Positions 15,354-34,665 of a stretch of DNA of 40,373 nt are shown here, in pieces. Within the stretch, counting starts at the first letter, position 1, and every line of letters begins with the position of its first letter. This stretch comes from an uncultured Massilia sp. (GTDB taxonomy: Bacteria > Pseudomonadota > Gammaproteobacteria > Burkholderiales > Burkholderiaceae_D). A program made the translations under genes and the position numbers. The notes beneath the pieces are model-generated. The model ran no database searches. It was not told the origin of the DNA and saw only the letters and a program-made list of their open reading frames with translations. The stretch lies in the NCBI GenBank assembly GCA_913777025.1, contig CAJYQM010000187.1:1-40373 (forward strand), given 5' to 3'.

Positions 15354-17573
15354 TTACAAAACCTTGTCCAGCGTGATCGGCAAGTCGCGCACCCGTTTGC
15401 CGGTCGCGTGATACACCGCATTCGCGATCGCGGCGCCGACGCCCGTGATGCCGATCTCGCCGATGCCCTTGGCTCCCAGCGGGTTCACATGCGGGTCGTC
15501 CTCGTCGACGATCTGCACGTCGATGGACTGGATGTCGGCATTGGTCGGCACGTGGTATTCGGCCAGGTTCCCGTTCACGGCGCGGCCGGCGCGCTTGTCG
15601 ATCATGGTTTCCTCGAACAGCGCCAGGCTGATGCCCCAGACCACCCCGCCCATCAGCTGGCTGTAGCCCGTCTTTTCGTTCATCAGCTTGCCCACGCCGT
15701 AAACGCCGACCACGCGCGGCACGCGGATCTCGCCCAGGTCTTCGTCGACCTCCACTTCGACGAACACCGCGCCGAACGCATGCATCGAGTACTTCTTGCT
15801 GGCGTCGCCCGGCTCGGCCTTGGCCGTCACCTCCACCGGCTCGCCATGGGCCTGCTGGTGGCGCGTCGCGATCTCCAGCATGCTGGTGCGCTTGCCCGGG
15901 TCGGCCAGCAGGTACAGCTCGCCCAGTTCGACGCCGACCTCGTCCGGGTGCGCGCCGGACAGCGGCGAGTGCTCGTCCGCGCTAGCGATGCCGACCAGTT
16001 TCAGGCGCAGCGCATGGCCGGCCGCCTGCACCGCCGGGCCGACGCTGGCCACCGTGGTCGAGCCGCCCGACACCGGCGCTTCCGGCATCTGCGAGTCGCC
16101 GAGCTCGAAGCGCACGCGCTCGACCGGCAGGCCCAGCGCATCGGCCGCGATCTGCGTCATGACGGTGTAGGTGCCGGTGCCCAGGTCCTGGGTGCCCGAC
16201 CGGAACAGCGCGGTGCCGTCGGGCAGGATCGTGGCCGAGCACTGGCCGGCTGAGCGGTTGGTCGGGTAGGTGGCGGTGGCCATGCCCCAGCCGACCAGCT
16301 TGCCGTCCCGGCGCATCGAACGCGGTTGCGGGTCGCGGTCCTTCCAGCCGAAACGCTCGGCGCCGATCTCGTAGCACTGGCGCAGCGACTTGCTCGACCA
16401 CGGCAATTCCTTGCCCGGGTCGCGCTCGGTGTAGTTCTTGAGGCGCAGGTCGAGCGGGTCCATGTTCAGCGCGTACGCCAGCTCGTCCATCGCCGACTCC
16501 AGGGCGAACGAGCCGGACGCTTCACCCGGCGCGCGCATGAAGGTCGGCGTGCCCAGGTTCATGCGCGCCAGCCGGTGCGAGGTTTCCTGGTTCGGGCTTT
16601 CGTACATCATGCGCGTCATCAGGCCGCACGGTTCGATCCAGTCCTCGAGCATCGAGGTGTAGGCGATGGTGTCGTGGCTGGACGCCATCATGCGGCCGTC
16701 GTCCATCGCCGCCATGCGCATGCGCTGTTCGGTGACGGGACGCTGGCCGACCGGGCCGAACATCTGGTTGCGGTCCAGCGAGAGTTTCACGGGACGGCCC
16801 AGCTGTCTGGCCGCCATCGCGGTCAGCGGCACGTGCGACCAGATCGAGCCCTTGGAACCGAAGCCGCCGCCGACGTAGGGGCAGATCGCCGTCACGTTTT
16901 CCTGCGGGATGCCGAAGATGGCGGACAGGATCTTCTGCACGCCCTTCATGTACTGGGTCGAGTCGTGCACCGTCAGCTTGTCGCCATTCCACTGTGCGAT
17001 GGTGGCGTGGGTCTCGAGCGGATTGTGGTTCTCGATCGGCGTGTGATAGATCGCTTCCACGCGCCGGCTGCCGGCCAGCAGGCCCGCCTGCAGATCGCCC
17101 CGTCTGGTGTCGGTGCTCTCGGTCAGCACCTTCTCGGGCGGATGCAGCGAGCGCTTGGCTTCGTCGAAGTCGAGCACCGCCGGCTTGTGTTCGTACTCGA
17201 CGCGCAGGCGCGCCGCAGCGTCGCGCGCGTGCTCCAGCGTGTCGGCCACGACCACCGCGACCGGCTGGTTGTTGTAATACACATCGTCTTCCTGCAGCAG
17301 CGTCAGACGGCGGCCGACCGGGGGCTGGATCTTGCCGTCCCGGGTTTCCTGGGGCAGGCGCATGGCGTTCTGCGGGGTCATCACCAGCAGCACGCCGGGC
17401 ACTTCACGCGCCGCGGTATCAATGATGCGCAGCACGCGGCCGCTCGGAATGCTGGACGTGACCAGCACCGCGTGGGCCAAGCCTTCGACCGGGTGCTCGG
17501 CCGAGTAACGCGCCGCGCCGCTGACCTTGGCCCAGGCGTCGGTCCGGTTGATGGGTGCGCCGATCGAAGTCAT
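15354..17573 (-). CDS. paoC: Aldehyde oxidoreductase molybdenum-cofactor subunit (PaoC-like)
   Basis: 739 residues of the xanthine oxidase family large subunit. The N-terminal a/b hammerhead domain includes RTDAWAKVSGAARYSAEH. Cofactor-binding motifs follow, including GGGFGSKG, APGEASGSFALESAMDELA and GTGTYTVMTQIAADALG. The catalytic base is Glu706 in GAKGIGEIG near the C-terminus. The family oxidises aldehydes (aromatic ones in Escherichia coli PaoABC) to acids at a molybdenum centre carrying a cytosine dinucleotide. Its start overlaps the stop of the FAD subunit by four bases (ATGA). No XdhC/PaoD-type maturation gene lies in the window, so the insertion chaperone must be elsewhere. Confidence 0.88.
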   Translation of the reverse strand: MTSIGAPINRTDAWAKVSGAARYSAEHPVEGLAHAVLVTSSIPSGRVLRIIDTAAREVPGVLLVMTPQNAMRLPQETRDGKIQPPVGRRLTLLQEDDVYYNNQPVAVVVADTLEHARDAAARLRVEYEHKPAVLDFDEAKRSLHPPEKVLTESTDTRRGDLQAGLLAGSRRVEAIYHTPIENHNPLETHATIAQWNGDKLTVHDSTQYMKGVQKILSAIFGIPQENVTAICPYVGGGFGSKGSIWSHVPLTAMAARQLGRPVKLSLDRNQMFGPVGQRPVTEQRMRMAAMDDGRMMASSHDTIAYTSMLEDWIEPCGLMTRMMYESPNQETSHRLARMNLGTPTFMRAPGEASGSFALESAMDELAYALNMDPLDLRLKNYTERDPGKELPWSSKSLRQCYEIGAERFGWKDRDPQPRSMRRDGKLVGWGMATATYPTNRSAGQCSATILPDGTALFRSGTQDLGTGTYTVMTQIAADALGLPVERVRFELGDSQMPEAPVSGGSTTVASVGPAVQAAGHALRLKLVGIASADEHSPLSGAHPDEVGVELGELYLLADPGKRTSMLEIATRHQQAHGEPVEVTAKAEPGDASKKYSMHAFGAVFVEVEVDEDLGEIRVPRVVGVYGVGKLMNEKTGYSQLMGGVVWGISLALFEETMIDKRAGRAVNGNLAEYHVPTNADIQSIDVQIVDEDDPHVNPLGAKGIGEIGITGVGAAIANAVYHATGKRVRDLPITLDKVL

Positions 17574-18556
17574 GACTGTCCTCCCGCCTGTTGCAGCGCC
17601 CGCGCCACTGCGCGCTGCGCCAGTTCCACCTTGAATGCATTGTGCTGGTAGGGCCGGGCACCGGCCACCGCGGCTTCACCCGCCTTCGCCAGCACCTCGT
17701 CCGTCAAGGCCTGGCCGCGCAAGACGTTCTCCGCCTCGATCGCGCGCCAGGGTTTGTGGGCCACGCCGCCCAGCACGATGCGCGCGTCGCGCACCTTGTC
17801 GCCGTCGAATTCGATGGCGGCCGCCACCGACACCAGCGCGAAGGCATAGCTGGCACGGTCGCGCACCTTCAGGTAGTGCGAATGCTTTGAGAACTTCGGC
17901 GCCGGCAGTTCCACCGCGACGATCAGTTCGCCCGGCTGGATCACGGTATCGAACTGCGGCTGGTCTTCCGGCAGGCGGTGGAAGTCGGCGACCGGGACCT
18001 GGCGCGCGCCGTCCGGTCCCTGCAGGTGGACGATGGCGTCGAGCGCCACCAGGGCCACGCTCATGTCGGACGGATTGGTCGCGATGCACTGCGGGCTGGC
18101 GCCCAGGATCGCGTGGATGCGGTTGTGGCCGTCGATGGCATCGCAGCCCGAGCCCGGATCGCGCTTGTTGCAATGGGCGAAGGTCGGGTCGGTGAAGTAA
18201 TAGCAGCGCGTGCGCTGCAGCAGGTTGCCGCCCACGGTCGCCATGTTGCGCAGCTGGGTCGAAGCGCCGTTCAGCAAGGCCTCGGACAGCAGCCGGTAGC
18301 GCTGGCGCACCAGCGGGTGGTTGGCCGCCGCGGTGTTGCTGGCCATGGCGCCGATGCGCAGGCCGCCGCCGGGCAGCTCGTCGATTGCGGAGAGCGGCAG
18401 GCGGCTCACATCCACCAGGCGCACCGGCTTTTCGATGCCGCTTTTATACAGGTCGAGCAGGTTGGTGCCGCCGCCGATGAATTTGGCGCCGGGCTGGCGT
18501 CCCAGTTCGATCGCGTGGTTCACGTCGCTGGCGCGTTCGTAGGAGATCGATTGCAT
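17570..18556 (-). CDS. paoB: Aldehyde oxidoreductase FAD subunit with 4Fe-4S cysteines (PaoB-like)
   Basis: 328 residues from the ATG at 18556, with GGAG about ten bases upstream. The open frame continues upstream but only as a shadow of the next gene. The FAD-binding region includes KFIGGGTNLLDLYKSG (25-40) and ATVGGNLLQRT (106-116). Four cysteines (118, 129, 138, 157) lie in the pattern CYYF, HCNKR, GSGCDA and QCIA. This is characteristic of the PaoB subgroup, whose FAD subunit carries an extra 4Fe-4S cluster and which ordinary xanthine dehydrogenases lack. It transfers electrons between the molybdenum and 2Fe-2S subunits and its acceptor. It is translationally coupled to the molybdenum subunit. 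Confidence 0.88.
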   Translation of the reverse strand: MQSISYERASDVNHAIELGRQPGAKFIGGGTNLLDLYKSGIEKPVRLVDVSRLPLSAIDELPGGGLRIGAMASNTAAANHPLVRQRYRLLSEALLNGASTQLRNMATVGGNLLQRTRCYYFTDPTFAHCNKRDPGSGCDAIDGHNRIHAILGASPQCIATNPSDMSVALVALDAIVHLQGPDGARQVPVADFHRLPEDQPQFDTVIQPGELIVAVELPAPKFSKHSHYLKVRDRASYAFALVSVAAAIEFDGDKVRDARIVLGGVAHKPWRAIEAENVLRGQALTDEVLAKAGEAAVAGARPYQHNAFKVELAQRAVARALQQAGGQS

Positions 18557-18570
18557 GGTCTCTCGTCTCC

Positions 18571-19191
18571 TCAGGCCTGGCGCAGGACGACGCTGCGGAT
18601 CGCCTTGACGATGTTCGGATAGGCGCCGCAGCGGCACAGGTTGCCGCTCATGCGCTCGCGGATTTCGGCGTCCGACAGCGCGCCCGGCTCCAGCTGCTCG
18701 CCGTCGGTGAGCGCGCTGGCCTGGTGCTGCTTGACCTCGTCGAGCAGGGCCACGGCCGAACAGATCTGCCCCGGAGTACAGTAGCCGCACTGGAAGCCGT
18801 CGCAGTCCATGAAGGCCTGCTGCATCGGATGCGGCTCGCCCTCTTGGGCCAGGCCCTCGATGGTGGTGATCTCGCGGCCGTCGTGCATCATCGCCAGGGT
18901 CAGGCAGGCATTGATGCGCTGGCCGTCGACCAGCACCGTGCAGGCGCCGCACTGGCCGCGGTCGCAGCCCTTCTTGGTGCCGGTTAGTTGCAATACTTCA
19001 CGCAGCGCGTCGAGCAGGGTCACGCGCGGTTCGATGTTCAGGGTGTGCTCCTTACCGTTGATGCGCAGGGTCAAAGGCTGCGGCGGCACATAGGGTGGGG
19101 ACGCCGGCGGTGCAGCCTGCGCCAACCCCTGGCCGGGGCTCTGGTCGTCTTGAGGCATTGCTGTTCTCGCTTCCTGTTGGTTGTCAAACAT
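18571..19191 (-). CDS. paoA: Aldehyde oxidoreductase 2Fe-2S subunit (PaoA-like)
   Basis: 206 residues with two [2Fe-2S] sites. The plant-ferredoxin-type site uses Cys76, 81, 84 and 96 (GCDRGQCGAC, then NACLTL). The second site uses Cys135, 138, 186 and 188 (FQCGYC and NLCRCG). The 35 residues before the first domain are Gln/Pro/Ala-rich and contain no twin-arginine motif, whereas E. coli PaoA is exported by Tat. The enzyme here therefore looks cytoplasmic. The start could instead be the ATG at 19158, since neither candidate has a strong ribosome site. It is the first gene of a probable four-gene unit with the FAD, molybdenum and SDR genes. Confidence 0.88.
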   Translation of the reverse strand: MFDNQQEARTAMPQDDQSPGQGLAQAAPPASPPYVPPQPLTLRINGKEHTLNIEPRVTLLDALREVLQLTGTKKGCDRGQCGACTVLVDGQRINACLTLAMMHDGREITTIEGLAQEGEPHPMQQAFMDCDGFQCGYCTPGQICSAVALLDEVKQHQASALTDGEQLEPGALSDAEIRERMSGNLCRCGAYPNIVKAIRSVVLRQA

Positions 19192-22688: not shown

Positions 22689-22890
22689 ATGACGAGCGGC
22701 CGGGAAGGCCTGCAGGGCAAGGCGGATCGTCGAAGACAGTACTCATGGTACGGCGAGACGATCCAACGCCGCCATGCGGGCCTTATCGCATAACGAGCGC
22801 CCGAGAAGGCCTGCAGGGAAAGGCGGATCGTCGAAGACAGTACGCATGGTACGGCGAGACGATCCAACGCCGCCATGCGGGTCTTATCGG
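22689..22890. repeat. Two tandem 101-bp repeats with internal stem-loops
   Basis: Copy 1 (22689-22789) and copy 2 (22790-22890) align without gaps with only about seven differences. Each holds an exact inverted pair GGATCGTC/GACGATCC (22724-22731 with 22757-22764, and 101 bases later in copy 2), enclosing a second pair GTAC/GTAC. GACGAGCG at the left end of copy 1 is mirrored by CGCTCGTC just past copy 2. The pair fills the whole gap between two convergent genes and runs into the 3' end of nudC. It resembles dispersed REP-type repeats rather than a gene. Confidence 0.8.
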
Positions 22891-23711
22891 GCGCTCGTCG
22901 TCGGGCGGTGGGCGTCCACCAGCATGCTCGAGATCGAGATGTGCGGCACGCGCTCGGGCCACGCGTCGTCCGGCCCGAACCAGCGCGCGTCGAGGATCTC
23001 GTTCGCATCGGTGCGGATCTCGCCGTCCAGGTAGTCGGCCGTGAAGGCGATCATCAGCGAATGCGGGAAAGGCCAGGACTGGCTGCCGAAATAGCGCAGG
23101 TTGTGGACGCGCAAGCCGACTTCTTCGAACACTTCGCGGTGCACCGCCTCCTCGATGGTCTCGCCCGCTTCCAGGAAGCCGGCCAGCGGCACGTAGCGCT
23201 GGACCGCCGACTGCGCGTGCAGGGCCATCAGGAAGGCATCCCCCTTCCGGATCAGGACCATCATCGCCGGCGAGATGCGCGGATACGCGATGTGGCCGCA
23301 ATTCACGCAGCGGAAACCGCGTTCGCCCGAGGCCAGCGCGGTGCCGCTGCCGCAGGCGCCGCAGAAGCGGTGGGTGCGCGCCCACTCGGCGATCTGCGCG
23401 GCGCGCATCGCCACGCCCAGCAGCGCTTCGTCGAGTTCCCCGAACAGCGACCGCAGGCCGCGCCAGCCGTAGCCGGCCGGGGCTTGCGCCTCCTCGTCGA
23501 GCCAGCCGGCCTGGCAATAGCGCCCGTCCAGCAGGCCGACCGGCTGCAGGCGCTGCGGATCCAGCGCCAGGCCGGTCACGACGGCGGCATCCGGCAGCGC
23601 CAGGTCGGCTTCGCGCACCAGCAGGCGGTTTTGATGGAACAGGAAAGTCAGGGCGTCGGCATCGGAGCGGGATGTCATCAGGGGCGTGAACGAAGCGGGC
23701 GTCTGGAGCAT
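22884..23711 (-). CDS. nudC: NADH pyrophosphatase / NAD-cap hydrolase NudC
   Basis: 275 residues. The four-cysteine zinc site is Cys117, 120, 135 and 138 (FCGAC, RCVNCG). The Nudix box starts at Gly178 (GFLEAGET) and ends REVFEEVG around 192-199. The family signature SQPWPFPxS appears at 210-218 as SQSWPFPHS, with Ser in place of the usual Pro. NudC hydrolyses NADH and removes NAD caps from RNA in the cytoplasm. The stop codon and last residue lie inside the second copy of the 101-bp repeat, so the extreme C-terminus is repeat-derived. The gene is divergent from the carbamoyltransferase. Confidence 0.93.
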   Translation of the reverse strand: MLQTPASFTPLMTSRSDADALTFLFHQNRLLVREADLALPDAAVVTGLALDPQRLQPVGLLDGRYCQAGWLDEEAQAPAGYGWRGLRSLFGELDEALLGVAMRAAQIAEWARTHRFCGACGSGTALASGERGFRCVNCGHIAYPRISPAMMVLIRKGDAFLMALHAQSAVQRYVPLAGFLEAGETIEEAVHREVFEEVGLRVHNLRYFGSQSWPFPHSLMIAFTADYLDGEIRTDANEILDARWFGPDDAWPERVPHISISSMLVDAHRPTTSAR

Positions 23712-23931: not shown

Positions 23932-25626
23932 ATGATCGACGCCCCCGTCGTGCTCGGCATTAACCGGACCCAGGACGGCAGCGCCTGCCTGATGCAGGGC
24001 TCGCACGTGCTGTGGGCGATCCAGAAAGAGCGCTTGACGCGCCGCAAGCACCACTGGGGCAAGGTCGGGGATTTCCGCGACCTCTACGGCCCTCGCCTGC
24101 CCTGGCCCGAGCGTCCGGTCGACGTCGTGGTCGAGTGCTTCTCGTCGGATCTCGAAGCCGGCAACCTGGCCCTGTACGAGGACGAGCTGACGGCCAGCGT
24201 GCGCCTGGCGCCGGATTGCCGGCGCGCGCGCATCTCGCACCACATGGCCCACGTCTACAGCGTGTTCCATCCGTCCCCCTTCCGCGCGGCCGCGGTGATG
24301 ATCGTCGACGGCCAGGGCAGCCCGGTGTCCGAGCTGACCGAGCACTGGGGCGGCGCGGCCTATGTGCCGGGCGACTGGCGCGAGGTGTCCTCGTTCTACC
24401 GCGCGGACCGCGAACGCGTGCTGTGCATCGGCAAGCAGGTCTGGAACCGGGACGACGCGCGCCTGGTCGGCCTCGGCATGTTCTATTTCCTGCTGACCCA
24501 GGCCATCTTCCCCGGCGAAGGCAACGAGGGCAAGGTGATGGGCCTGGCGCCGCACGGCAACCCGCACATGCTCGGCCTGCCGCCGCTGGACGTGGAAGCC
24601 GGCCAGGTCAGCATCCCGGCGCCCTGGCGCGAGGTGCTGCGCGAGCGCGAGCGCTTCCGCTACGGCCAGGCGGGCAGCACGTTCTCCGATTGCGCCAACC
24701 TGGCGGCGGCCGGCCAGTGCGCCTTCGAGGATGCCCTGCTGGACGTCGCGCGCTGGCTGCATCGCCAGACCGGCTTGCCGCACCTGTGCTTCGCCGGCGG
24801 CACCGGACTGAACTGTTCGGTCAACGAAAGGCTGTTGCGCGAAACGCCCTTCGAGGACGTGTTCATTCCCCCCGCCCCGAGCGACGCCGGCACTGCACTC
24901 GGCTGCGCCATGTACGGCTTGACCGAGCTGTGCCACGAAAGCGGCGCCTTCCGCTGGACCCATGACTACCTCGGTCCGCAGCCATCGCGCCAGGACATCG
25001 AGGCGGCGCTGCGCGATCGCGACGACCTGAAGGTGGATTTCCTGCCCGGCCTGGACGCGCTGAGCAGCAACCTGCTCGACCTGCTACGCAACAACCGCGT
25101 CGCGGCCCTCTACCAGGGGGCAAGCGAATTCGGCCCGCGCGCGCTGGGCCACCGCAGCATCCTGGCCGATCCGCGCCGCGCCGCCATGCGCGAATGGATC
25201 AATGCCCGTGTCAAGCAGCGTGAATGGTTCCGCCCGCTGGCGCCGATGGTGCTGGAGGAACGCGCGCTCGACTGGTTCGACCTGCCCGGCGCCACGGCTT
25301 TCACCCAGTTCGCCTTCATGCAGTTCGCGGCGCCGGTGCGGCCGCACATGGCGGCGCAGGTCGCGGCGATCACCCACGTCGACGGCACCGCGCGCCTGCA
25401 GACCGTCGGCCCCGACGACGACCCGCTGCTGCGCCGCCTGCTGGGCGGCTTCGAGGCGCGCACCGGCGTCCCGGTCCTGCTGAACACCTCCTTCAACGGC
25501 AAGGACGAGCCAATCGTCGAAACACCGGCCGATGCCGTCGCGGCTTTCCGCAACATGCCTTTGCACGCTCTGGCGATTCCGCCCTTCCTCGTCACCAAGC
25601 GCAGCGAGCCGGAGCTCCCGGGATGA
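23932..25626 (+). CDS. Carbamoyltransferase, NodU/CmcH family
   Basis: 564 residues from the ATG at 23932, with AGGAG six bases upstream. The open frame before it has no family resemblance. The N-terminal Kae1-like domain starts VLGINRTQDGSACLM and carries the metal-site motif HHMAH (103-107), with FAGGTGLNCSVNERLL further on. The C-terminal domain has EFGPRALGHRSILADPR and VLLNTSFNGKDEPIVETP, the YrdC-like carbamoyl-adenylate transfer part. The family moves carbamoyl groups from carbamoyl phosphate to hydroxyls on antibiotics, Nod factors or sugars. The acceptor is unknown. The overlap with the next gene and nearby glycosyltransferases suggest a glycan. No signal peptide, so the enzyme is cytoplasmic. 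Confidence 0.92.
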   Translation: MIDAPVVLGINRTQDGSACLMQGSHVLWAIQKERLTRRKHHWGKVGDFRDLYGPRLPWPERPVDVVVECFSSDLEAGNLALYEDELTASVRLAPDCRRARISHHMAHVYSVFHPSPFRAAAVMIVDGQGSPVSELTEHWGGAAYVPGDWREVSSFYRADRERVLCIGKQVWNRDDARLVGLGMFYFLLTQAIFPGEGNEGKVMGLAPHGNPHMLGLPPLDVEAGQVSIPAPWREVLRERERFRYGQAGSTFSDCANLAAAGQCAFEDALLDVARWLHRQTGLPHLCFAGGTGLNCSVNERLLRETPFEDVFIPPAPSDAGTALGCAMYGLTELCHESGAFRWTHDYLGPQPSRQDIEAALRDRDDLKVDFLPGLDALSSNLLDLLRNNRVAALYQGASEFGPRALGHRSILADPRRAAMREWINARVKQREWFRPLAPMVLEERALDWFDLPGATAFTQFAFMQFAAPVRPHMAAQVAAITHVDGTARLQTVGPDDDPLLRRLLGGFEARTGVPVLLNTSFNGKDEPIVETPADAVAAFRNMPLHALAIPPFLVTKRSEPELPG

Positions 25627-27098
25627 TCCGCGCCTATCCAGGGCAGGCCAGCGTGTGGCCGGGCGGCACGCTGGCATTGCACGTCTCTACCGACAGCGCG
25701 CGCTTTCGCGTCGCCTTCCACCGCTGGGCCGACGGACCGCAGCTGATGTCGCGTTCCGCCTGGCTGCCCGGCAGGCAGCTCGATGCGCGCGCGGCGGGCG
25801 CCGATTGGGATTGGCCGCCGTATGCCTTCGACATCCCGGCCGGCTGGCCATCCGGCGTCTACATCGCCATGCTTGAAGAAGCCGGCCACCCGCGCAGCTT
25901 CGACCTGGCGCGCGACGAGGGCGCCGCCCTGTTCGTGGTGCGCGGCCAGGGCAAGGGTTTGCTCTATAAACTGCCGCTGGCGACCTATCACGCCTACAAC
26001 TTCACCGGCGGCGGCTGCTTCTACGACAAGCCGCCGCGTTCCAGCGCGCCGCCGGGCGCGCGCGTATCGCTGCGCCGTCCGGGCGGCGGCATCGGCGGCG
26101 ACGTCTGGGGCGCGCCGGACCACTACGATGCGAGCTCGCCGCGCCAATCCTTCGCGCACTGGGATGCGCGCTTCATCCGCTGGCTGGCCCGCAACGGCTA
26201 TGCGGCCGACTTCTGCACCGACCTCGACATCCATGCCGATCCCGGCCTGTTGCGCCGCTATCGCCTGCTGGTATCGAGCGGCCACGACGAATACTGGAGC
26301 GAAGCCACCCGGGATGCGGCCGAGTCGTTTGCGGATGCCGGCGGCAACCTCGCCTTCTTCGGCGCCAACCTGTGCTGGTGGCGCATCCACATCGTCGACG
26401 ATGGCGCGGCCATGGTCTGCCACCAGGGCGGGCCGCAAGGCGCGCGCGACCACTGGTGGCCGCCCACCGGCGCGGCACGGCCGGAAGACAGCCTGGGCGG
26501 CGTCAGCTACCGCCATGGCGGCGGCTGGTGGGATGGCCCGCGCCAGACCACGGGCTACCTGGTCCAGCAGCCCGATCACTGGGTCTTCGCCGGCACCGGC
26601 CTCGCGCGGGGCGAGGCACTCGGGCGCGACACCTGGCCGCCGCTGGTCGGCTACGAATGCGATGGCGCGCCGCTGGCCCGCATCGATGTCCGCGATGGCG
26701 CCATCCTGGCGGACTGGGCCGTTGAAGCCGGCACGCCACCCGCTTATCAAGTGCTGGCCGCGGCCCCGCTCGGCCCCGGCTGGCAGGAATTGCCGCCGCG
26801 CGAGCGCCAGGCGGCCAGCCAGGGGGTGTCCGGCGAGGATGCACCCGGTGAGGAGGCACCCAGCGAGCGGACGCCCGGCGTGGGAGCGCCTGGCCAGGGC
26901 CTGCACGCCGCCACGCTCGGTCTGTTCCGGCGCATGGGTAGCGACAACGGCAGCAACAACGGCAACGGCAGCGGCAGCGCCCGCGGCACCGTATTTTCGA
27001 GCGGCACCACCGACTGGGCGCAGGTGCTCGGCACGGCGCGCGACCGCCGGGTCGAGCGCATCACGCGCAACGTACTGGACACCTTGCTGCGCGCTTGA
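25623..27098 (+). CDS. N,N-dimethylformamidase large-subunit-like protein
   Basis: 491 residues. The ATG at 25623 overlaps the carbamoyltransferase stop (ATGA). An N-terminal beta-sandwich-like part (1-110: VWPGGTLALHVST, GWPSGVYIAML) precedes the conserved core, with TYHAYNFTGGGCFYD (121-135), RFIRWLARNGY, SSGHDEYWS (218-226) and NLAFFGANLCWWRI. This is the pattern of the large-subunit C-terminal family of N,N-dimethylformamidase, an iron-dependent amidohydrolase. Tyr224 and Glu223 are candidate metal residues, not proven. Between 395 and 455 is an insertion of Gly/Glu/Pro repeats and an Asn/Gly/Ser run. No small subunit is encoded nearby. The substrate is unknown, and action on a carbamoylated or amidated glycan intermediate is inference from position. 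Confidence 0.75.
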   Translation: MIRAYPGQASVWPGGTLALHVSTDSARFRVAFHRWADGPQLMSRSAWLPGRQLDARAAGADWDWPPYAFDIPAGWPSGVYIAMLEEAGHPRSFDLARDEGAALFVVRGQGKGLLYKLPLATYHAYNFTGGGCFYDKPPRSSAPPGARVSLRRPGGGIGGDVWGAPDHYDASSPRQSFAHWDARFIRWLARNGYAADFCTDLDIHADPGLLRRYRLLVSSGHDEYWSEATRDAAESFADAGGNLAFFGANLCWWRIHIVDDGAAMVCHQGGPQGARDHWWPPTGAARPEDSLGGVSYRHGGGWWDGPRQTTGYLVQQPDHWVFAGTGLARGEALGRDTWPPLVGYECDGAPLARIDVRDGAILADWAVEAGTPPAYQVLAAAPLGPGWQELPPRERQAASQGVSGEDAPGEEAPSERTPGVGAPGQGLHAATLGLFRRMGSDNGSNNGNGSGSARGTVFSSGTTDWAQVLGTARDRRVERITRNVLDTLLRA

Positions 27099-27114
27099 AA
27101 TCCGAGGAACCGCC

Positions 27115-28167
27115 ATGCTTCGCCGACCGCTCCTGCATCGCACTGCCCCGGCCTCCGTCATCGTGTTCCGCGCGCTGCAGCTGGGCGACATGCTGTGCGC
27201 CGTGCCGGCACTGCGCGCCCTGCGCCGCGCGCTGCCGCAGGCGCGCATCGCGCTGGCCGGGCTGCCCTGGGCGCGGCAGTTCACGGCGCGCTTTCCCGGC
27301 TATGTCGACGAATTCATCGCCTTTCCCGGCCACCCGCTGTTGCCGGAGCAGCCGGTGCACCATGCGGAGCTTGCCGATTTCTACACCGGCCTGTGCGCGC
27401 GCCGCTTCGGCATGGCGCTGCAGCTGCACGGCAGCGGCGACGTCAGCAACGACATCGTCAGCGGCTTCGGCGCCGAGACCATGGCCGGCTTTTGCCGCGG
27501 CGATGCGGTCGCGCGTGAGCGCACCGTGCTGTTTCCCTACCCCGAGACCGGCACCGAACCGGAACGCCTGCTGGGCCTGGTCGAGCAACTCGGTGCCGAA
27601 GCCGCCGGCGTGCACCTCGAATTCCCGCTGTCGCGCCAGGACGAAGACGAGCTCGCCGCCAGTGGCGTCGCGCGTGAGCTCGAGCCCGGCAGCTACCTGT
27701 GCATCCACCCGGGTGCACGCCAGCGCGACAAATGCTGGCCGCCGCGCCATTTCGCCGAGGTCGGGGACCGCCTGGCGGCCGAATTCGGCCTGAAGGTCGT
27801 GCTCACGGGCTCGGCCCAGGAAGCGGACCTGACCGCCGCGGTGGCCTCGCACATGCGCACGACGCCGGTCGATGCGGCCGCCCCGATCTCGATCGGCGCC
27901 ATGGCCGTGCTGATGCGCGACGCCAGGCTGCTGCTGTGCAACGACACCGGCGTCTCCCACATCGCCGCCGGGCTGCGGCTGAAAAGCGTGGTCATCTTCA
28001 GCAAGGCCGATATCGCGCGCTGGGCGCCGCTCGACCGTCATACCCACCGCTGCATCTGGGACCCGGCCGCGGAACGGGCAGCTGTCGTGCTGCACCATGC
28101 GCGTGCCCTGCTGGCCGGCACGGCCCCCAGCCGGCAGCGCACGGTCGGCATGTGGCCCTACTGGTGA
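27115..28167 (+). CDS. Glycosyltransferase family 9 (heptosyltransferase-like)
   Basis: 350 residues, with GAGGA at 27104-27108 giving ideal spacing to the ATG. The N-terminal motif FRALQLGDMLCAVPALRALR matches the heptosyltransferase opening (usually LGD). The C-terminal nucleotide-sugar half contains LCIHPGARQRDKCWPP and LLCNDTGVSHIAAGL, the DTGxxH motif of family 9. The family adds ADP-heptose or related sugars to lipopolysaccharide core and other acceptors on the cytoplasmic side. It follows the formamidase-like gene by 16 bases in the same operon. It ends 14 bp from a second, convergent family 9 gene. The donor sugar is not predictable from sequence here. Confidence 0.88.
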   Translation: MLRRPLLHRTAPASVIVFRALQLGDMLCAVPALRALRRALPQARIALAGLPWARQFTARFPGYVDEFIAFPGHPLLPEQPVHHAELADFYTGLCARRFGMALQLHGSGDVSNDIVSGFGAETMAGFCRGDAVARERTVLFPYPETGTEPERLLGLVEQLGAEAAGVHLEFPLSRQDEDELAASGVARELEPGSYLCIHPGARQRDKCWPPRHFAEVGDRLAAEFGLKVVLTGSAQEADLTAAVASHMRTTPVDAAAPISIGAMAVLMRDARLLLCNDTGVSHIAAGLRLKSVVIFSKADIARWAPLDRHTHRCIWDPAAERAAVVLHHARALLAGTAPSRQRTVGMWPYW

Positions 28168-28181
28168 GCCGGCAAGGGTTT

Positions 28182-29273
28182 TCAACGCGAGCCGGCCAGC
28201 GCATCCCGTGCCAGCGCATCGCGCGCCAGTCCTGCCACCTCGTCCAGCGTGACCTCGTCGACGAAGCTGGGATCGTGCTCGCAACGCCGCGCCAGGTTGT
28301 CCTGCCCGCATACCGGACAGCGCGTGCGTACCGCCAGCGCCGCGCGCAAGCCGGACGGCCGCAGGGGTGCGCCTTCGAGCAGGTTCGTCAGCCAGAAGAT
28401 ACCAACGCTGGGCACGCCCAGCGCCAGCGCCAGGTGCAGCGGACCGGTATCGTTCGATACGACCAGCGCCGCGCGCTCGATCAATCCGCACAGCCCGCCC
28501 AGGCCCAGCCCACCGGCAAGCGCCGTAGCACGATGGCGCATGCCCCCGACGACGGCCTCCACCAGCCCGGCTTCGGCCAGCGATCCATTCACGGCCAGCT
28601 GCGCGCCTTGCTCCACCAATATATCCCCCAGCAAGGCAAAGCGCTCGGCCGGCCAGCAGCGCCGCGGGTCGGTCGAGCCCGGCTGCAGGATCACCAGGCG
28701 CTCGCCATTGACTGGCGGCAAGCATGACGCCGCCTCGTGCCGGTCCGCCTCCGTGACCACCAGCTCCGGCATCGGCAAGGGCCCCGGCCCGGCGCCGGCC
28801 AGCCCGGCGATTTCCAGCAGCGCCAGCCTGCGGTTGACCGGTTCGCGGTAGGGCAGCCAGCGGTCCAGCCCCGGCGCGTCCGGCGCCCGCGCGCCCACGC
28901 TCAGGCGCGCCTGCCAGCCAAGCAGGAAAGGATTCGAATACAGCCCGCCGCCGAACATCTGCAGCGCCAGGTCGAAGCGTTCCGCGCGCATGCGCTCGAT
29001 GAACTCGCCGATCGCGCGCAAGTCGGCCGGGCTATCGAGCGGCGCACCCACGCCGGGCACCGCCGGCATCTCGACGACGCGGTCCACCGGTCCCGGCCGC
29101 CCCTCCAGGAAGGTCCGGTGCCAGGCCTTGCCGATCAGCACCAACTCGGCTTCCGGATAGCGATGCTTCAACGCATGCAATGCCGGCAGCGCGAACACGA
29201 AGTCGCCGACCGCGTTCGGGCGCAGCACGGCGATCCTGCGCACGTCCTCCAGTTGCGTATATCGGGCTGTCAT
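28182..29273 (-). CDS. Glycosyltransferase family 9 (heptosyltransferase-like), second copy
   Basis: 363 residues from the ATG at 29273, with a GAGGC ribosome site. An ATG-like start further upstream (29378) falls within the next gene. IAVLRPNAVGDFVFALPALHALK is the family 9 N-terminus. VILQPGSTDPRRCWP and VVSNDTGPLHLALALGVPSVGIF form the C-terminal donor site. Unlike its neighbour, it has a cysteine cluster (CPVCGQDN and RRCEHD) near 332-350, possibly a zinc site. It ends in a short near-repeat (ALARDALARDALAGS). It lies 13 bp after the family 2 glycosyltransferase on the same strand. Its role is probably in the same glycan pathway. Confidence 0.88.
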   Translation of the reverse strand: MTARYTQLEDVRRIAVLRPNAVGDFVFALPALHALKHRYPEAELVLIGKAWHRTFLEGRPGPVDRVVEMPAVPGVGAPLDSPADLRAIGEFIERMRAERFDLALQMFGGGLYSNPFLLGWQARLSVGARAPDAPGLDRWLPYREPVNRRLALLEIAGLAGAGPGPLPMPELVVTEADRHEAASCLPPVNGERLVILQPGSTDPRRCWPAERFALLGDILVEQGAQLAVNGSLAEAGLVEAVVGGMRHRATALAGGLGLGGLCGLIERAALVVSNDTGPLHLALALGVPSVGIFWLTNLLEGAPLRPSGLRAALAVRTRCPVCGQDNLARRCEHDPSFVDEVTLDEVAGLARDALARDALAGSR

Positions 29274-29286
29274 GGGCCGCCTCGCC

Positions 29287-30183
29287 TCACTCGATCGTGC
29301 CGGCGCCGCGTGACGCGGCATCCGGCAGCCCGGCATCCGGCGCCGGATCCGGTACCAGCGGCAGCACGTAAGGCGCATCGACCTCGCGCGCCGTGACGGT
29401 CGTCGGCAATTCCATGTGATAGGCGCCGGAGGGCAGGATGGCGCAGCCGCCGTAGCGCGCCATCACGCGCTGCTGGGCCAGCACGTCTTCCCCGCAGTGC
29501 TGGGCCGGCAGAGATTCCCAGAAGTCGAAGCCGCCGGCGGCGCGCAGCAGGGCCGTGTCGAACAGTACGCAACCGCCGACCCAGGCGACCTTGTAGCGCC
29601 GCGCGACGCCATCGCCGGTGGCGAGCCGGGTCTGCACGTGGAACAGGTTGGCGGCGCTGTGCAGGTGGTGGCGTGCCCAGGCGGTGCTGCCGGGACGCAC
29701 GGTTTCCGGCCGTACCGGGCCGTTCCAGAATTCGATGGCTTCCTGCGCCGGCCGCAGCTGGCCCAGGTGGCTCAGGCCGTGCAGCGCGCTGCCGACGAAG
29801 CCGCAGCGTTCCTCGCGGATGACGCCGTGCAGGCGCGTCACCAGGTCGGGATCGAGGATGACGTCGTCGTCGACGAACAGGCAGTAGGTGGATCGCGCCT
29901 GGGCCAGCAGGAAGGCGCGCTGCTCGGCCATGCCGCGGCGCGGCAGGCGGCGGAAAGTGTCGACCTGGCGCCCGGTGGCGCGCAGCCAGCGCAGCACGGC
30001 CTGCACCTCGGCCTGGTCGCAGGCGCCGCGCAGCTCCGATTGGTCGGAGACGACGATGCGCAGCCGCGGCCAGCTCTGGCTGCCGAGCGTGGCCAGCGTG
30101 ACGGCCAGCGCGGCCGGGCGATTACAGGTCGGCACCAGCACGTCGATGGTTTCGCGCAGGGGGCCCCGCATGCCGCCGCTCAT
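29287..30183 (-). CDS. Glycosyltransferase family 2
   Basis: 298 residues from the ATG at 30183, which overlaps the stop of the DUF4254 gene by four bases. The GT-A fold is clear: [21 protein letters not shown] at 13-33, the metal-binding [11 protein letters not shown] (Asp105-107) and a late [10 protein letters not shown] with [10 protein letters not shown] supplying the catalytic acid region. These enzymes transfer a sugar from a nucleotide donor to a lipid- or saccharide-linked acceptor in the cytoplasm. No membrane segment is evident, so it is soluble or peripherally bound. The tail after residue 270 is Pro/Asp/Ala-rich. Confidence 0.88.
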
Positions 30184-30803
30184 GGCGCCGCCCTTCCCGC
30201 GCCGCGTGCCTGCCCGTTCAGGTAGGGATTGAGCGCGGGATCGTTGTACATCTTGAACTGGCGGTAGACCTTGAAATAGGCGCGGCCGGCCTGCGCGTCC
30301 TGCAGCAGGGCATCCAGGCAGGACAACAGGTCGCGGCGCTGCACGTCCAGGCGCTCGAGCTTGGCGCCGCAGGCCTGCACGTGCGCCTCGGTGACGTCGA
30401 GGCGCAGGGTCTGGGCGCGCATGTGGTGGATCTTGAGGGCCAGGATGGACAGACGGTCGATCATCGCGCCCGCGGTTTCGCTGGACAGCCGGGCGCCTTC
30501 GAGCACCGTCACGCCACGCAGTTCCGCCAGCAGCGCTTCGTCGATGGCTTCGACGGCATCGTTGCGGCGCTGGTTGTAGCGGTCGATCAGGCGCTTGCCG
30601 GCGGCGATGTCCTCGGGCGGCACGTCGAGCCGGCGCGCGCGGTCTTCCTCGCGCCAGAGCAGGCCGTTGTAGCGGTGGTTGGCGTCGATCGATTGCCACA
30701 GGCCCGACGGGCAGTGGGCATGCGACAGCATGGGCCAGTCGCGTTCCTGCAACTGGCGGTCGTGGAACCATGCGACGGACGACGCATCGATTTCGCTCTG
30801 CAT
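30180..30803 (-). CDS. DUF4254 protein
   Basis: 207 residues from the ATG at 30803. The frame extends upstream without conserved sequence. Characteristic segments are [39 protein letters not shown] and [13 protein letters not shown], matching DUF4254, a helical family of unknown function. From memory such genes often sit beside glycosyltransferases, as here. The stop overlaps the start of the family 2 glycosyltransferase (ATGA), so the two are probably made in fixed proportion. The protein has no signal peptide or membrane segment and no recognisable catalytic motif. A scaffold or chaperone role for the glycosyltransferase is possible but untested. Confidence 0.8.
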
Positions 30804-30912: not shown

Positions 30913-32550
30913 TCAGGCCGCGATGCTCCTGTGAGCCAGTTTCGGAACGGTACGGTTCGGCTGAGCGGCGTGAACCTGTGCCTGGCCTTTCATGCGGAAC
31001 ACGCTCACCAGCTGCGCCAGGCCGGCGGACTGGTCCTGCAGCGACTGGGCGGCGCCGGCGGCTTCCTCGACCATGGCGGCGTTCTGCTGGGTCACCTGGT
31101 CCATCTGGCTGACGGCCTGGTGGATCTGTTCGATACCCATGCTCTGTTCCTGGCTGGCCACGGTGATCTCGCCCATGATGCCGGCCACGCGGTGGATGCT
31201 GTCGACCACGTCGCGCATCGTCGCGCCGGCCTGGTCCACCAGGCGGCTGCCGCTGTCGACCTTGTCCACCGATTCCGAAATCAGGGCCTTGATTTCCTTT
31301 GCCGCTGCCGCCGAGCGGTGCGCCAGGGTGCGCACCTCGCCCGCCACCACCGCGAAACCGCGGCCCTGCTCGCCGGCACGGGCCGCTTCCACGGCCGCGT
31401 TCAGCGCCAGGATATTGGTCTGGAAGGCGATGCCGTCGATCGTGCCGATGATGTCGACGATCTTGCGCGCCGATGCCTGGATCTCGCCCATGGTCGAGAC
31501 CACGTCCTCGACCACGGCGCCGCCCTTCACCGCCACCGCCGAGGCCGATGCCGCCAGCGCGTTGGCCTGGTGAGCGTTCTCGGCGTTCTGCTTCACGGTC
31601 GAACTAAGTTCCTCGACCGAGGCGGCGGTTTCTTCCAGCGTGCCGGCCTGCTGCTCGGTGCGCGTGGACAGGTCCATGCTGGCGGCGCCGATCTCGGCCG
31701 AGGCCGCGGCGATGGTCTCGGCGTCGCCGCGCACCTGGCCCACGATGTTGGCCAGGCTGTCGTTCATCTCGCGCAGGGCCAGCAGCAGCTGGCCGAATTC
31801 ATTGCGTGCATCGGTGCGGATGTCGCCGCTGAGGTCGCCCTTGGCCACGCTGCGCGCGATCGCCACCGCCTCGGCGAGCGGCTTGACGATGCTGCGCGCC
31901 AGGAACAATGCCGCGCCCAGGCCGAGCAGGGAGCCGGTCACGATGGCCGCGACCATCAGCGCGTTGCGCGTGCCGATGGCGTCGTGCGCCAGCACGGCAT
32001 TGTCGCGGCTGCGCTTGTCGAGCAGGGCAAACAGCGCCTCATAAGCTGGCTGTGCCTTCTTGTAGCCCGGGTTGACGCGGGTGATCAGGATGCGCTCGGC
32101 CTCGTCCCAGTTGGCGGCCTCGAGGGCACGGGTGGCGGCGCCGATGTCCTCGATGCCCAGTCCGCCGCTCTGTTCGTACCACCTGGCGACCAGCGCCTTG
32201 GCCTCGGGGGTCTGCAGCGACGCGCTGAACTCGTCGCGCGCCGCTTCCAGGGCGCGGGTGTTGTCGGCGATCTGCTTGAAATGCACCGCCAGCGGATGGT
32301 CGTGCAGCTTGGCGTAGTCGGTGGCAGGGTTGTGCTGCAGGGCCTGTAGCAGCTGGCTGCGGTTGGTTTCCATGCGCAGCATGATGTTGCTGACTTTTCC
32401 TTGCTGACGCGCATCGCGCAGCGACACGCCTTCGAGCAGCGACACGGCGGTCCGGGTATTGGCGTAACCAAGTGCGCCGACTGCCAGGACGATGCCGATG
32501 AGGAGGGCCGCAACGGATGCGACGATGATTTTGATACTGATGTGTCTCAT
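30913..32550 (-). CDS. Methyl-accepting chemotaxis protein
   Basis: 545 residues from the ATG at 32550. A 16-residue upstream extension lacks the membrane anchor and was not used. The first membrane helix is about 7-29, and a helical-bundle periplasmic sensor spans about 30-196. The second membrane helix is 197-219, the HAMP domain about 216-270, and the signalling domain 275-525. The hairpin tip [32 protein letters not shown] is split over 371-402 and is nearly invariant in the family. It couples periplasmic ligand sensing to CheA/CheW. There is no C-terminal pentapeptide tether for CheR. The ligand is unknown. No other chemotaxis gene is nearby, so it is an orphan receptor. Confidence 0.94.
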
Positions 32551-32750
32551 TGATTCATGACTTTCAAGGCAATTCGACGCAATAAAGAGAGTGGGCACGG
32601 CGCCGGCGCGGATCTTTGTTGCGATATTGAAAGTTTTAATGAATTCAATGCAACAAACGTTGTATTATCATCGAATCCGTCAAATTTTTCCGTGCGGAAA
32701 TATAGCTAATCGTCCAGAATAGATGACTGTTCATCAAATTACTTACAGCC

Positions 32751-33617: not shown

Positions 33618-34665
33618 GGCGCTGTTCGCATCAAGTGTGGAAAACGCCGATCGCCGCCCTGAGCAGAGCGTCCGGGGTACCGATGCGTTGTCCGTCGAGC
33701 GCCCAGCGCCAGCCCAGGTAATTGCCGAGATAGCGGCTGGCCACGCCGTGGAAAGGGCGCAGCCAGTCGCGCAGTCGGCCGTGGTAGGCGTTGACGTTTT
33801 GCACATGAATGGCGCCACGTGCCCGGATGCCGGCGGCAAGGTTCACGGCCTCGTGCGTGATCCCGGCGCCCCTGGCGAAGCTTCGGTAGGCGGCGTGGGC
33901 ATCGGTCACCAGCAGCACGTCGCGTTCCAACCGCGGCAGGAGATGCTGGTCGAGCTGGCGGCGCGTGACGGGACCCTTGCCCGGGACCCAGTCGAACGTC
34001 TGCCCGGTGCGGTCACGCGCGACCAGGATGCACATCTGTTCATTTGAAATCCCACGTTTTGTCGCTTTGCCGCCGCGCTTGCGTGGTGGACGATCCAGTT
34101 TGCGTGAACCCTTGTGGGATTCGAGCACATACATCTCGTCGGCTTCGGCGATGCCGGCTAGTCGCTGCGGGCGGTCCTCCTTGCTCAGCGTCAGGAAACG
34201 GTGGCGCCAGCGGAAGCTGGTGGTGCTGGCGACACCGAGATCGGAGGCGGCACGGCGCACACTGCGCGAGTCGAGCATGTGGGCCAGGGAGTCGAGCCAG
34301 TGCCGCTTGTGGCGCAGCCGCGCGAGCGGGGTGCCCGTCAGTGCGTTGCAGGTGCGGCCGCAGTCGCGGCAGCGATAGCGCTGCAGGCCGTGCGCATGGC
34401 CATGGCGGTAGAGCTTGCTTGATGAGCAGGCGGGACAGGCAAGCCTGCCGGCCATCGCTTGCTCGATCAGCCCGATGGTGTGGTCGAGATTCGCCGCGGG
34501 CCGCAGCAGGGCGAGCAGGCGGTCGCGCTGGCGCCGGGTCAGCGTATCGAGATGCTTGAGGAAGTGCTCGAACTTGCGCGCATGCATGACGACTCCGGAC
34601 GGTGGTTCAGGTCGTCTTTGGACCCCAGCCGTTCAAGAAGTTCAACACGTAATGCGAACAGCGCC
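33618..34665. mobile_element. Complete IS1595-family insertion sequence (1048 bp)
   Basis: Both ends begin GGCGCTGTTCGCAT reading inward (14 identical bases, then about 8 of the next 11). The left inverted repeat starts at 33618 and the right one ends at 34665. A perfect 8-bp duplication (AAAAAAAT) flanks it. It carries one transposase gene, transcribed on the minus strand, whose stop codon lies in the left inverted repeat. The undamaged ends and flanks suggest a recent insertion. Removing the element and one duplication restores a Rho-independent terminator after the MFS gene. Confidence 0.93.
33631..34587 (-). CDS. IS1595-family transposase (ISXO2-like)
   Basis: 318 residues. An N-terminal zinc ribbon (Cys51, Cys54, Cys73, Cys76: CPACSSSKLYRHGH, RCRDCGRT) is followed by a helix-turn-helix segment near 107-130. 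The ISXO2-type catalytic domain follows: Asp150 in EADEMYV, Asp229 in LLVTDAHAAY, and the HVQNVNAYHGRL segment with Asn264/Asn266 and His269 at the third catalytic position. FHGVASRYLGNYLGWRW is the typical C-terminal block. The gene is uninterrupted and the element has intact ends, so the transposase is probably functional. It moves the element by cut-and-paste. Confidence 0.92.
   Translation of the reverse strand: MHARKFEHFLKHLDTLTRRQRDRLLALLRPAANLDHTIGLIEQAMAGRLACPACSSSKLYRHGHAHGLQRYRCRDCGRTCNALTGTPLARLRHKRHWLDSLAHMLDSRSVRRAASDLGVASTTSFRWRHRFLTLSKEDRPQRLAGIAEADEMYVLESHKGSRKLDRPPRKRGGKATKRGISNEQMCILVARDRTGQTFDWVPGKGPVTRRQLDQHLLPRLERDVLLVTDAHAAYRSFARGAGITHEAVNLAAGIRARGAIHVQNVNAYHGRLRDWLRPFHGVASRYLGNYLGWRWALDGQRIGTPDALLRAAIGVFHT

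What the first reader, a model, noticed from the sequence alone, without database searches (positions are those of the whole stretch)
23932..30803. Candidate carbamoyl-glycan cluster: carbamoyltransferase, dimethylformamidase-like protein, three glycosyltransferases, DUF4254
Seen: the carbamoyltransferase and formamidase-like genes overlap by four bases and are followed after 16 bases by a family 9 glycosyltransferase. A second family 9 enzyme, a family 2 enzyme and a DUF4254 protein face them with a 14-bp gap, and the last two also overlap (ATGA). Known: NodU/CmcH enzymes carbamoylate hydroxyls, and N,N-dimethylformamidase large subunits are iron amidohydrolases. Inference: the pair makes and edits a carbamoyl or amide decoration on a glycan built by the three transferases. 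I know of no described system with this combination.
Basis: partly seen in the sequence, partly recalled or inferred. Interest (0 to 1): 0.7.

Follow-up and report, generated by a model that had tools for sequence, protein, structure and literature searches.

The report
Carbamoyl-sugar cluster with dimethylformamidase-like enzyme
Six neighbouring bacterial genes look like a conserved sugar-chain assembly line in which a carbamoyl-adding enzyme is paired with a relative of an iron-dependent amide-cutting enzyme, a pairing that recurs in very distant bacteria and whose product is not yet known.

Summary
The six genes are real and sit as described. In 62 same-genus genomes the dimethylformamidase-like (DMF) and carbamoyltransferase (CT) genes co-occur (both 26, DMF only 3, CT only 8, neither 25); the set is a decaying island at one site. 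The CT-DMF pair recurs far outside the genus: same-strand in Nitrosospira, Noviherbaspirillum and Caldimonas, tail-to-tail in Actinomycetota and Thermomicrobiota. GT9b is found (E<=1e-30) in 24 of 25 tested genomes with such a pair and in 0 of 29 with DMF but no CT. GT9b often sits beside GT2 and, in Actinomycetota and Nitrosospira, HldE (ADP-heptose synthesis), so the glycan probably contains heptose and is not only LPS core. The five DMFase active-site positions align to conserved residues (the second tyrosine less surely). Where the GT9b-GT2-DUF4254 arm is lost, catalytic residues of both DMF (4 of 4) and CT (6 of 8) decay. Most likely GT9/GT2 build a heptose glycan, CT carbamoylates it and DMF hydrolyses an amide on it; substrate and order are inferred. 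Nearest described systems are Pseudomonas WapO and bleomycin BlmC/D/E; no DMFase-like partner was seen for either in the passages read.

The parts
23932..25626 (+). CT: carbamoyltransferase (NodU/CmcH/TobZ type), 564 aa; H103, H107, D126, D318 (metal ligands by recall of TobZ) and YrdC-like C-terminal domain kept
25623..27098 (+). DMF: small dimethylformamidase-beta-like protein (PF20254), 491 aa, no N-terminal hydrophobic stretch; conserved Y125, Y134, H221, E223, N249
27115..28167 (+). GT9a: family 9 glycosyltransferase, 350 aa, heptosyltransferase-like, below NCBIfam equivalog cut-offs
28182..29273 (-). GT9b: second family 9 glycosyltransferase, 363 aa; co-occurs with CT-DMF across phyla and lies near HldE in Actinomycetota and Nitrosospira
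29287..30183 (-). GT2: family 2 glycosyltransferase, 298 aa; near GT9b across phyla (52-55% identity in Actinomycetota)
30180..30803 (-). DUF4254 protein, 207 aa, function unknown; only copy found in this assembly
22884..23711 (-). Flank, not part of the system: NUDIX/NADH pyrophosphatase-like gene marking the left edge of the island
30913..32598 (-). Flank, not part of the system: methyl-accepting chemotaxis protein marking the right edge in a subset of relatives

Best explanation
A glycan-assembly module. GT9a and GT9b transfer sugars, probably heptose from ADP-heptose, and GT2 adds a further sugar. CT carbamoylates the product (or a nucleotide-sugar intermediate) with carbamoyl phosphate and ATP. 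The DMF-like protein is a cytoplasmic mononuclear-iron amidohydrolase that cuts an N-acyl amide (N-acetyl or N-formyl) on a sugar of the same glycan. DUF4254 is a proteobacterial accessory. SHOWN: gene set, synteny, cross-phylum CT-DMF linkage, co-occurrence with GT9b, GT9b near GT2 and HldE, conserved DMFase active-site positions by alignment, purifying selection, decay of catalytic positions in both DMF and CT where the GT arm is lost. INFERRED: heptose as the sugar, iron, amide hydrolysis, the acyl group, order of steps and the final location of the glycan.
For: 62 same-genus genomes: DMF/CT both 26, DMF only 3, CT only 8, neither 25 (Fisher 1.6e-7, not corrected for kinship); each of 29 with DMF has GT9a. 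Outside: 42 of 78 DMF loci carry CT, 39 of them within 260 bases, 28 same-strand and 14 convergent. GT9b at E<=1e-30 in 24 of 25 tested genomes with the pair against 0 of 29 tested with DMF only (6 of 29 at 1e-10); within one actinomycete family, 5 of 5 CT genomes against 30 of 145 others. Split loci GT9a><GT9b-GT2-DUF4254 in two Noviherbaspirillum, Massilia frigida and one more assembly. HldE near GT9b in 9 of 20 regions, and with CT and DMF in L192 and (partial) L179. DMFase residues Y399, Y440, H519, E521, N547 align to Y125, Y134, H221, E223, N249, invariant in 17 diverse proteins. N249 replaced in 4 of 4 DMFs from genomes without DUF4254, 0 of 21 others. CT residues H103, H107, D126 or D318 replaced in 6 of 8 full CTs from genomes without full DUF4254, 0 of 25 examined with it. 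CT and DMF distances correlate, r=0.96 over 30 pairs. A GT4 gene overlaps DMF and nucleotide-sugar genes follow in Streptomyces microflavus.
Against: No enzyme assay or glycan structure. With our GT queries a GT9 or GT2 relative was found beside only 2 of 14 convergent pairs (L179, L192) within the fetched flanks. GT9a and GT9b fall below NCBIfam heptosyltransferase cut-offs. The window protein lacks the N-terminal part of the DMFase large chain, and no small-subunit-like gene adjoins it. The decayed DMFs are two lineages, and five of the six decayed CTs look like one clade. L035 lost CT and GT9b yet keeps an intact DMF site; G041 and G053 have no full DUF4254 yet keep the four CT residues. 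GT9b in L192 has an in-frame TGA. HldE was found near GT9b in 9 of 20 regions only and in none of the Oxalobacteraceae ones.
Confidence: 0.4

Rival explanations
1. Writer and eraser: DMF hydrolyses or trims carbamoyl groups set by CT.
For: DMF without CT is rare (3 of 29). The four decayed DMFs are in genomes with no CT (L050, L051) or with a CT whose metal ligands are altered (L055, L056), while the 20 CT-linked reference DMFs keep the site.
Against: DMF relatives without CT in 36 of 78 loci, one of them among glycan genes in Streptomyces. L035 has no CT but an intact site.
Confidence: 0.23
2. Ureido sugar: DMF unmasks an amine and CT carbamoylates that amine, giving an N-carbamoyl sugar.
For: Explains the tight pairing in two gene orders in two clades. 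Of the 8 same-genus CTs without DMF, 4 have altered metal ligands and 2 of the other 4 (G009, G051) still carry DMF remnants, so long-term CT function without DMF is less common than the raw count suggests; raised from 0.15.
Against: Two CTs without any DMF (G041, G053) show no change at 108 invariant columns. The solved relatives found (GdmN, TobZ, novobiocin CT) are, from recall, O-carbamoyltransferases.
Confidence: 0.16
3. Ordinary LPS inner-core modification as in Pseudomonas WapO, with the DMF-like gene a passenger or non-enzymatic.
For: GT9 plus CT matches the WapO precedent. The genome has apparent WaaC and WaaF elsewhere, so these would be accessory (names by eye).
Against: The CT-DMF pair with GT9b recurs in Actinomycetota and Thermomicrobiota, which by recall lack LPS. 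DMF is under purifying selection with the active-site positions kept.
Confidence: 0.13
4. The set makes a small diffusible glycoside, like the carbamoylated disaccharide of bleomycin, rather than a surface glycan.
For: BlmC/BlmD/BlmE are described as sugar synthase, carbamoyltransferase and sugar transferase of one disaccharide; none of the six window proteins shows a clear membrane segment.
Against: No NRPS/PKS-type gene was noticed beside the cluster in the ORF lists read (by eye only, no search made); CT is found in about half of a whole genus at a fixed site.
Confidence: 0.08

Closest known systems
Pseudomonas LPS core carbamoyltransferase WapO (PA5005) with heptosyltransferases
   Same: A carbamoyltransferase acts in a heptose-containing glycan; carbamoyl on HepII (passages of PMC8005017)
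   Different: No DMFase-like gene or DUF4254 is mentioned in the passages read; LPS core, whereas the present set also occurs in Actinomycetota
Bleomycin disaccharide genes blmC-blmD-blmE-blmF
   Same: Sugar synthase, carbamoyltransferase and sugar transferase for one disaccharide (passages of PMC7017467; that BlmC resembles HldE and BlmE is GT9-like is recalled)
   Different: Secondary-metabolite cluster; no DMFase-like enzyme mentioned in the passages read
N,N-dimethylformamidase (DmfA1A2) of Paracoccus; N-acetyl-(R)-beta-phenylalanine acylase
   Same: Homologous C-terminal domain; DMFase active-site positions align
   Different: DMFase large chain is about 770 aa with a small subunit; the window protein is 491 aa, without such a neighbour, and sits in a glycan cluster
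NodU / GdmN / TobZ carbamoyltransferases
   Same: Two-domain architecture; closest solved relatives GdmN 1e-63, novobiocin CT 1.8e-59, TobZ 7.9e-52
   Different: Scores 141.7 against a cut-off of 1000 for NodU; its near relatives are paired with DMF
Oxalobacteraceae CT-GT9 pair in the SDR-GT4-GT4-GT2-ABC-CT-GT9-epimerase locus
   Same: CT directly beside a GT9a relative (45-51%) in 10 fetched loci from nine other genera, two further loci with about 1 kb between
   Different: CT only about 35-39% identical; no DMF there; the locus encodes an ABC transporter and epimerase

Membership tests
NodU/CmcH/TobZ carbamoyltransferase family | Carbam_trans N and C domains above gathering score | tested here: met
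   102 and 204.2 bits against 24 and 27
NodU/CmcH/TobZ carbamoyltransferase family | Metal ligands H, H, D, D (recalled from TobZ) | tested here: met
   H103, H107, D126, D318 present in the window; H107 in 53 of 53 and the other three in 51 of 53 aligned CTs, 8 DMF-less ones counted apart; aligned with GdmN
NodU/CmcH/TobZ carbamoyltransferase family | Carbamoyl transfer to a hydroxyl | not testable with these tools
   needs enzyme assay
N,N-dimethylformamidase large subunit | Homologous C-terminal domain | tested here: met
   PF20254 222.6 bits; hhalign probability 99.5
N,N-dimethylformamidase large subunit | E521, H519 and N547 | tested here: met
   E223, H221, N249
N,N-dimethylformamidase large subunit | Tyr399 and Tyr440 iron ligands | tested here: inconclusive
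   Y399=Y125 in the three alignments made; Y440=Y134 in two MAFFT modes but W162 in hhalign
N,N-dimethylformamidase large subunit | Full-length multi-domain chain with adjacent small subunit | tested here: not met
   491 aa against about 770; neighbours are CT and GT9a; the five reference loci have a short gene just upstream. A relative, not a DMFase
LPS heptosyltransferase I/II/III | NCBIfam equivalog cut-off | tested here: not met
   Best GT9a 64.2 against 170.2, best GT9b 78.4 against 134.6; GT9 family membership met
LPS inner-core (WapO-type) system | Confined to bacteria with LPS (that the phyla below lack LPS is recalled) | tested here: not met
   CT-DMF plus GT9b in Actinomycetota and Thermomicrobiota; HldE near GT9b in Actinomycetota
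LPS inner-core (WapO-type) system | Product is carbamoyl-heptose | not testable with these tools
   needs glycan analysis

The most novel reading that the evidence does not exclude
A hitherto undescribed glycan decoration shared by Gram-negative and Gram-positive bacteria: a DMFase-type iron amidohydrolase removes an acyl group from an amino sugar of a heptose-containing glycan, and its partner transferase carbamoylates the freed amine, giving a ureido sugar. The partnership may have arisen twice, since the paired DMFs fall into two clades with different gene orders.
Probability: 0.15. Interest if true: 0.82.

Novelty: new variant of a known kind. Interest (0 to 1): 0.58.

Why it matters
It gives part of the small-DMFase family (PF20254 outside solvent degradation) a concrete biological setting, glycan modification, and names a dependent partner set (CT, GT9b, GT2, HldE) for testing. 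It also suggests a heptose- and carbamoyl-containing glycan in actinomycetes, which have no LPS, and gives DUF4254 a genetic context in Betaproteobacteria.

Tried and rejected
LPS-core-only reading: set back by the actinomycete and Thermomicrobiota occurrences. DMF as a true dimethylformamidase: no small-subunit neighbour, short chain. Y168 as the second tyrosine ligand: considered first from spacing, dropped because it is F or H in many actinomycete and Streptomyces members and MAFFT aligned Y134 instead. The first genome search also gave 13 distant DMF places (31-37% identity) in 10 genomes; seven of these loci were fetched (L063-L069) and tblastn with the window genes found only DMF there. 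Literature: DUF4254 gave one paper, seen in the listing only; dimethylformamidase with carbamoyltransferase and glycosyltransferase gave none; the listings showed no such cluster (10 of 3,036 and 12 of 42 papers shown).

Counts and what was left out. One search aligned 25 of 32 DMF copies (window plus L032-L062): five frame-broken (L053, L057-L060) and two fragments (L061, L062) were left out. One search used 25 of 42 CT-positive loci (17 left out: L119, L120, L122-L128, L135-L140, L144, L150); one search used 29 of 36 CT-negative loci (L121, L159, L174, L181, L190, L194, L195 left out). In one search L174 was put with the actinomycete pairs although its 4-kb contig ends before CT could be seen; the tree used 56 chosen rows. 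In one search the 20 CT-linked reference DMFs include one other-genus protein (L052). CT residue counts cover 33 of 34 full same-genus CTs; G037 (L057) was left out because its frame runs on. CT 'full' means E<=1e-200. Locus layouts were read for 50 of 62 same-genus genomes (30 of them, 20), the window itself not counted.
Full report
The observation. All six genes are present at the stated coordinates with the stated overlaps and gaps, and the family names are right. CT starts at 23932: relatives start at the same motif, although an in-frame start upstream exists. The window is one whole contig of an 84%-complete assembly. Its closest matches in named genomes are mostly Massilia and neighbours, so the host is most likely a Massilia-like Oxalobacteraceae (inference).

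A conserved, decaying island. I read the locus in 50 of the other same-genus genomes. In 49 the site has the same left flank: a FolE-like gene, a membrane protein and a NUDIX gene (FolE and AraC named by eye). On the right a chemotaxis receptor or an AraC-like regulator is seen in a subset. G029 and a second copy in G005 lie elsewhere (L107, L108). The full order CT-DMF-GT9a, then GT9b-GT2-DUF4254 on the other strand, is seen repeatedly. Losses are modular: CT-DMF-GT9a only (L055, L056), DMF-GT9a only (L050, L051), GT9a with parts of the right arm (L099-L102). Fragments of DMF remain in L061, L062, L089 and L095. In 62 genomes (own included) DMF that is not a fragment is found in 29, full CT in 34, GT9a in 49, full DUF4254 in 39. 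DMF with CT: both 26, DMF only 3, CT only 8, neither 25; DMF with GT9a: 29 of 29. Five of the 29 DMFs are frame-broken. Kinship is not corrected for. Pairwise dN/dS among the window and its two nearest relatives is 0.12-0.33 for the six genes; DMF (0.23-0.33) is less constrained than CT (0.12-0.21).

The CT-DMF pair is wider than the genus. One scan of named genomes with the DMF protein kept 78 loci (the output keeps the best 80 of 155 relatives). CT lies beside DMF in 42 of 78: 28 on the same strand (Massilia, Duganella, Noviherbaspirillum, Nitrosospira, Caldimonas and other proteobacterial assemblies), 14 convergent (Nonomuraea, Planosporangium, Pseudonocardia, Sphaerisporangium, Bailinhaonella and others, plus two Thermomicrobiota). 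The gap is under 260 bases in 39 and about 730-770 in three Planosporangium loci. The partner CT is 51-55% identical to the window's in the convergent group. A different CT, only about 35-39% identical and without DMF, lies directly beside a GT9a relative in 10 fetched loci from nine other genera of the family. A tree of 56 chosen DMF proteins puts the two paired groups on two separate, fully supported branches, with CT-less Streptomyces, Mycobacterium and others between them. So the pairing either arose twice or was lost several times; deep branches are not all well supported. Pairwise distances of CT and DMF correlate (r 0.96 over 30 pairs; 0.79 within the proteobacterial set, 0.92 within the other).

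The transferases belong to the same system. Outside Massilia the GTs are often elsewhere in the genome. GT9b is found at E<=1e-30 in 24 of 25 tested genomes with the pair (the exception is the small assembly of L142, best 1e-16) and in 0 of 29 tested genomes with DMF but no CT, where the best match is 3.8e-26 and 6 of 29 have one at 1e-10. These two sets differ in lineage, so a control within one actinomycete family was run: 5 of 150 genomes have this CT, all 5 have GT9b, against 30 of 145 of the rest (Fisher 5e-4). So GT9b is common without CT, but CT was not seen without GT9b. Four of the five also have the close DMF beside CT; the fifth (G320) has CT, with an in-frame stop, about 8 kb from GT9b, and no DMF at the threshold. 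In 20 fetched GT9b regions GT2 is present in 13, DUF4254 in 4 (all proteobacterial), and HldE, the bifunctional ADP-heptose synthesis enzyme, in 9 (seven actinobacterial regions and two Nitrosospira). Of two HldE proteins tested, the adenylyltransferase-domain match passes its curated cut-off and the full-length and kinase models do not. In Sphaerisporangium fuscum (L192) GT9b, GT2, DMF, CT, a second GT9 (34%) and HldE lie together, though GT9b there carries an in-frame TGA. In a Pseudonocardia assembly (L179) DMF, CT, GT9b, a second GT9 (30%) and part of HldE lie together. A heptose-containing glycan is therefore likely, and it is not confined to LPS core, because these phyla lack LPS (recalled knowledge). 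The window's genome has apparent WaaC (beside a WaaA-like gene) and WaaF elsewhere (names from sequence look and neighbours, not from a curated cut-off).

The DMF-like enzyme. DMFase from Paracoccus binds iron with Y399, Y440 and E521 and needs H519; N547 is also named as an active-site residue (passages of PMC7686228). Profile alignment with the solved chain sets H519, E521 and N547 against H221, E223 and N249. Alignments with five DMFase-type chains set Y399 against Y125 and, in two MAFFT modes, Y440 against Y134; hhalign instead sets Y440 against W162. Y125, Y134, H221, E223 and N249 are invariant in 17 chosen proteins from Proteobacteria, Actinomycetota, Acidobacteriota and Myxococcota. 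The window protein is shorter than DMFase and has no small-subunit neighbour, so it is a relative and not a DMFase. A second solved relative is an N-acetyl-(R)-beta-phenylalanine acylase, which makes N-acyl cleavage a natural guess.

A natural experiment. Among 25 intact DMF proteins, four come from genomes with no DUF4254 at the threshold and no GT9b or GT2 at the locus: L050, L051 (no CT) and L055, L056 (CT present). All four have lost N249; L050 also Y134, H221 and E223; L051 also Y134 and H221; L055 also Y125 and, in this alignment, Y134. None of the other 21 has lost any of the five. L050 and L051 are 80% identical and share changes, L050 and L055 only 62%, so these are two lineages. CT decays in the same way. 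Of 8 full CTs from genomes without full DUF4254, six have lost one or more of H103, H107, D126, D318 (metal ligands by recall of TobZ): L055, L056, L090, L091, L094 lose H103, D126 and D318, L091 also H107, and L098 loses D318; L093 and L096 keep them. Of 25 examined CTs from genomes with DUF4254, none has lost any. The first five look like one clade. So catalytic positions of both CT and DMF appear to be needed while the GT9b-GT2-DUF4254 arm is present. The arm and a working CT are lost together in these genomes, so the data do not say which of the two DMF depends on; only L035 (no CT, no GT9b, GT2 and DUF4254 kept, DMF with no change at 169 positions invariant in CT-linked copies) separates them, and it points to the arm, or to a recent loss of CT.

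Mechanism. None of the six proteins shows a clear membrane segment by hydropathy, so the work is probably cytoplasmic, on an acceptor that is exported later. Committed model: GT9a/GT9b add heptose, GT2 a further sugar, CT a carbamoyl group, and the DMF-like enzyme removes an acyl group from an amino sugar. The steps after 'glycan module' are inferred.

Known or new. Carbamoyl on LPS heptose by WapO (passages of PMC8005017) and the carbamoyltransferase of the bleomycin disaccharide (passages of PMC7017467) are precedents. I found no held paper that joins a DMFase-like protein with a carbamoyltransferase and glycosyltransferases (search 26 gave none; listings of 87 and 88 showed none; open-licence library only). 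Hence: a new variant of a known kind, with a cross-phylum pair as the new part.

Noticed in passing
L058 about 9390-9404, L059 about 10270-10284, L060 about 10424-10438 (read on the DMF strand): Three related genomes (G026, G003, G006) share a 13-base stretch after DMF codon 254 that shifts the frame while the downstream frame stays conserved (dN/dS 0.17 for L058/L060, 0.43-0.49 for pairs with L059, which has a further stop). Old shared pseudogene or a translational frameshift is undecided.
   Followed up: partly
L053 and L057 (genomes G022 and G037): DMF is frame-broken at other places in two further same-genus genomes, which are in 1-2 contigs; could be decay or assembly error.
   Followed up: no
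L055, L056, L090, L091, L094: A CT subclade (58-61% identical to the window's) keeps full-length open frames although H103, D126 and D318 are replaced; it may be a non-carbamoylating leftover or a protein with a changed role.
   Followed up: partly
L076-L087, L112: A separate conserved glycan locus of the family, SDR-GT4-(165-aa unknown)-GT4-GT2-ABC transporter-CT-GT9-epimerase, in whole or part, with a different carbamoyltransferase.
   Followed up: partly
L107, L108, L139: In two same-genus genomes the window's GT set, and in a Duganella the full six-gene set, lies beside ABC and GT4 genes of that other locus, suggesting the two were once one cluster.
   Followed up: partly
L202 5977-7368: Streptomyces microflavus plasmid: small DMFase-like gene overlapping a GT4 gene and followed by nucleotide sugar dehydrogenase, epimerase and GT4, with YcaO and HEXXH peptide-modification genes upstream.
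   Followed up: no
L158, L162, L164, L167, L183 (Mycobacterium): Longer (about 620 aa) DMF relatives in a conserved neighbourhood sharing three gene families, no CT in the fetched flanks and no GT9b match in the genomes.
   Followed up: no
window 33631-34587 (-): Transposase-like ORF with a zinc-ribbon start, about 2.8 kb right of the cluster; judged by eye only.
   Followed up: no
window 15354-19191 (-): Three ORFs that look like a molybdenum hydroxylase set (2Fe-2S, FAD and molybdopterin subunits), judged by eye only.
   Followed up: no
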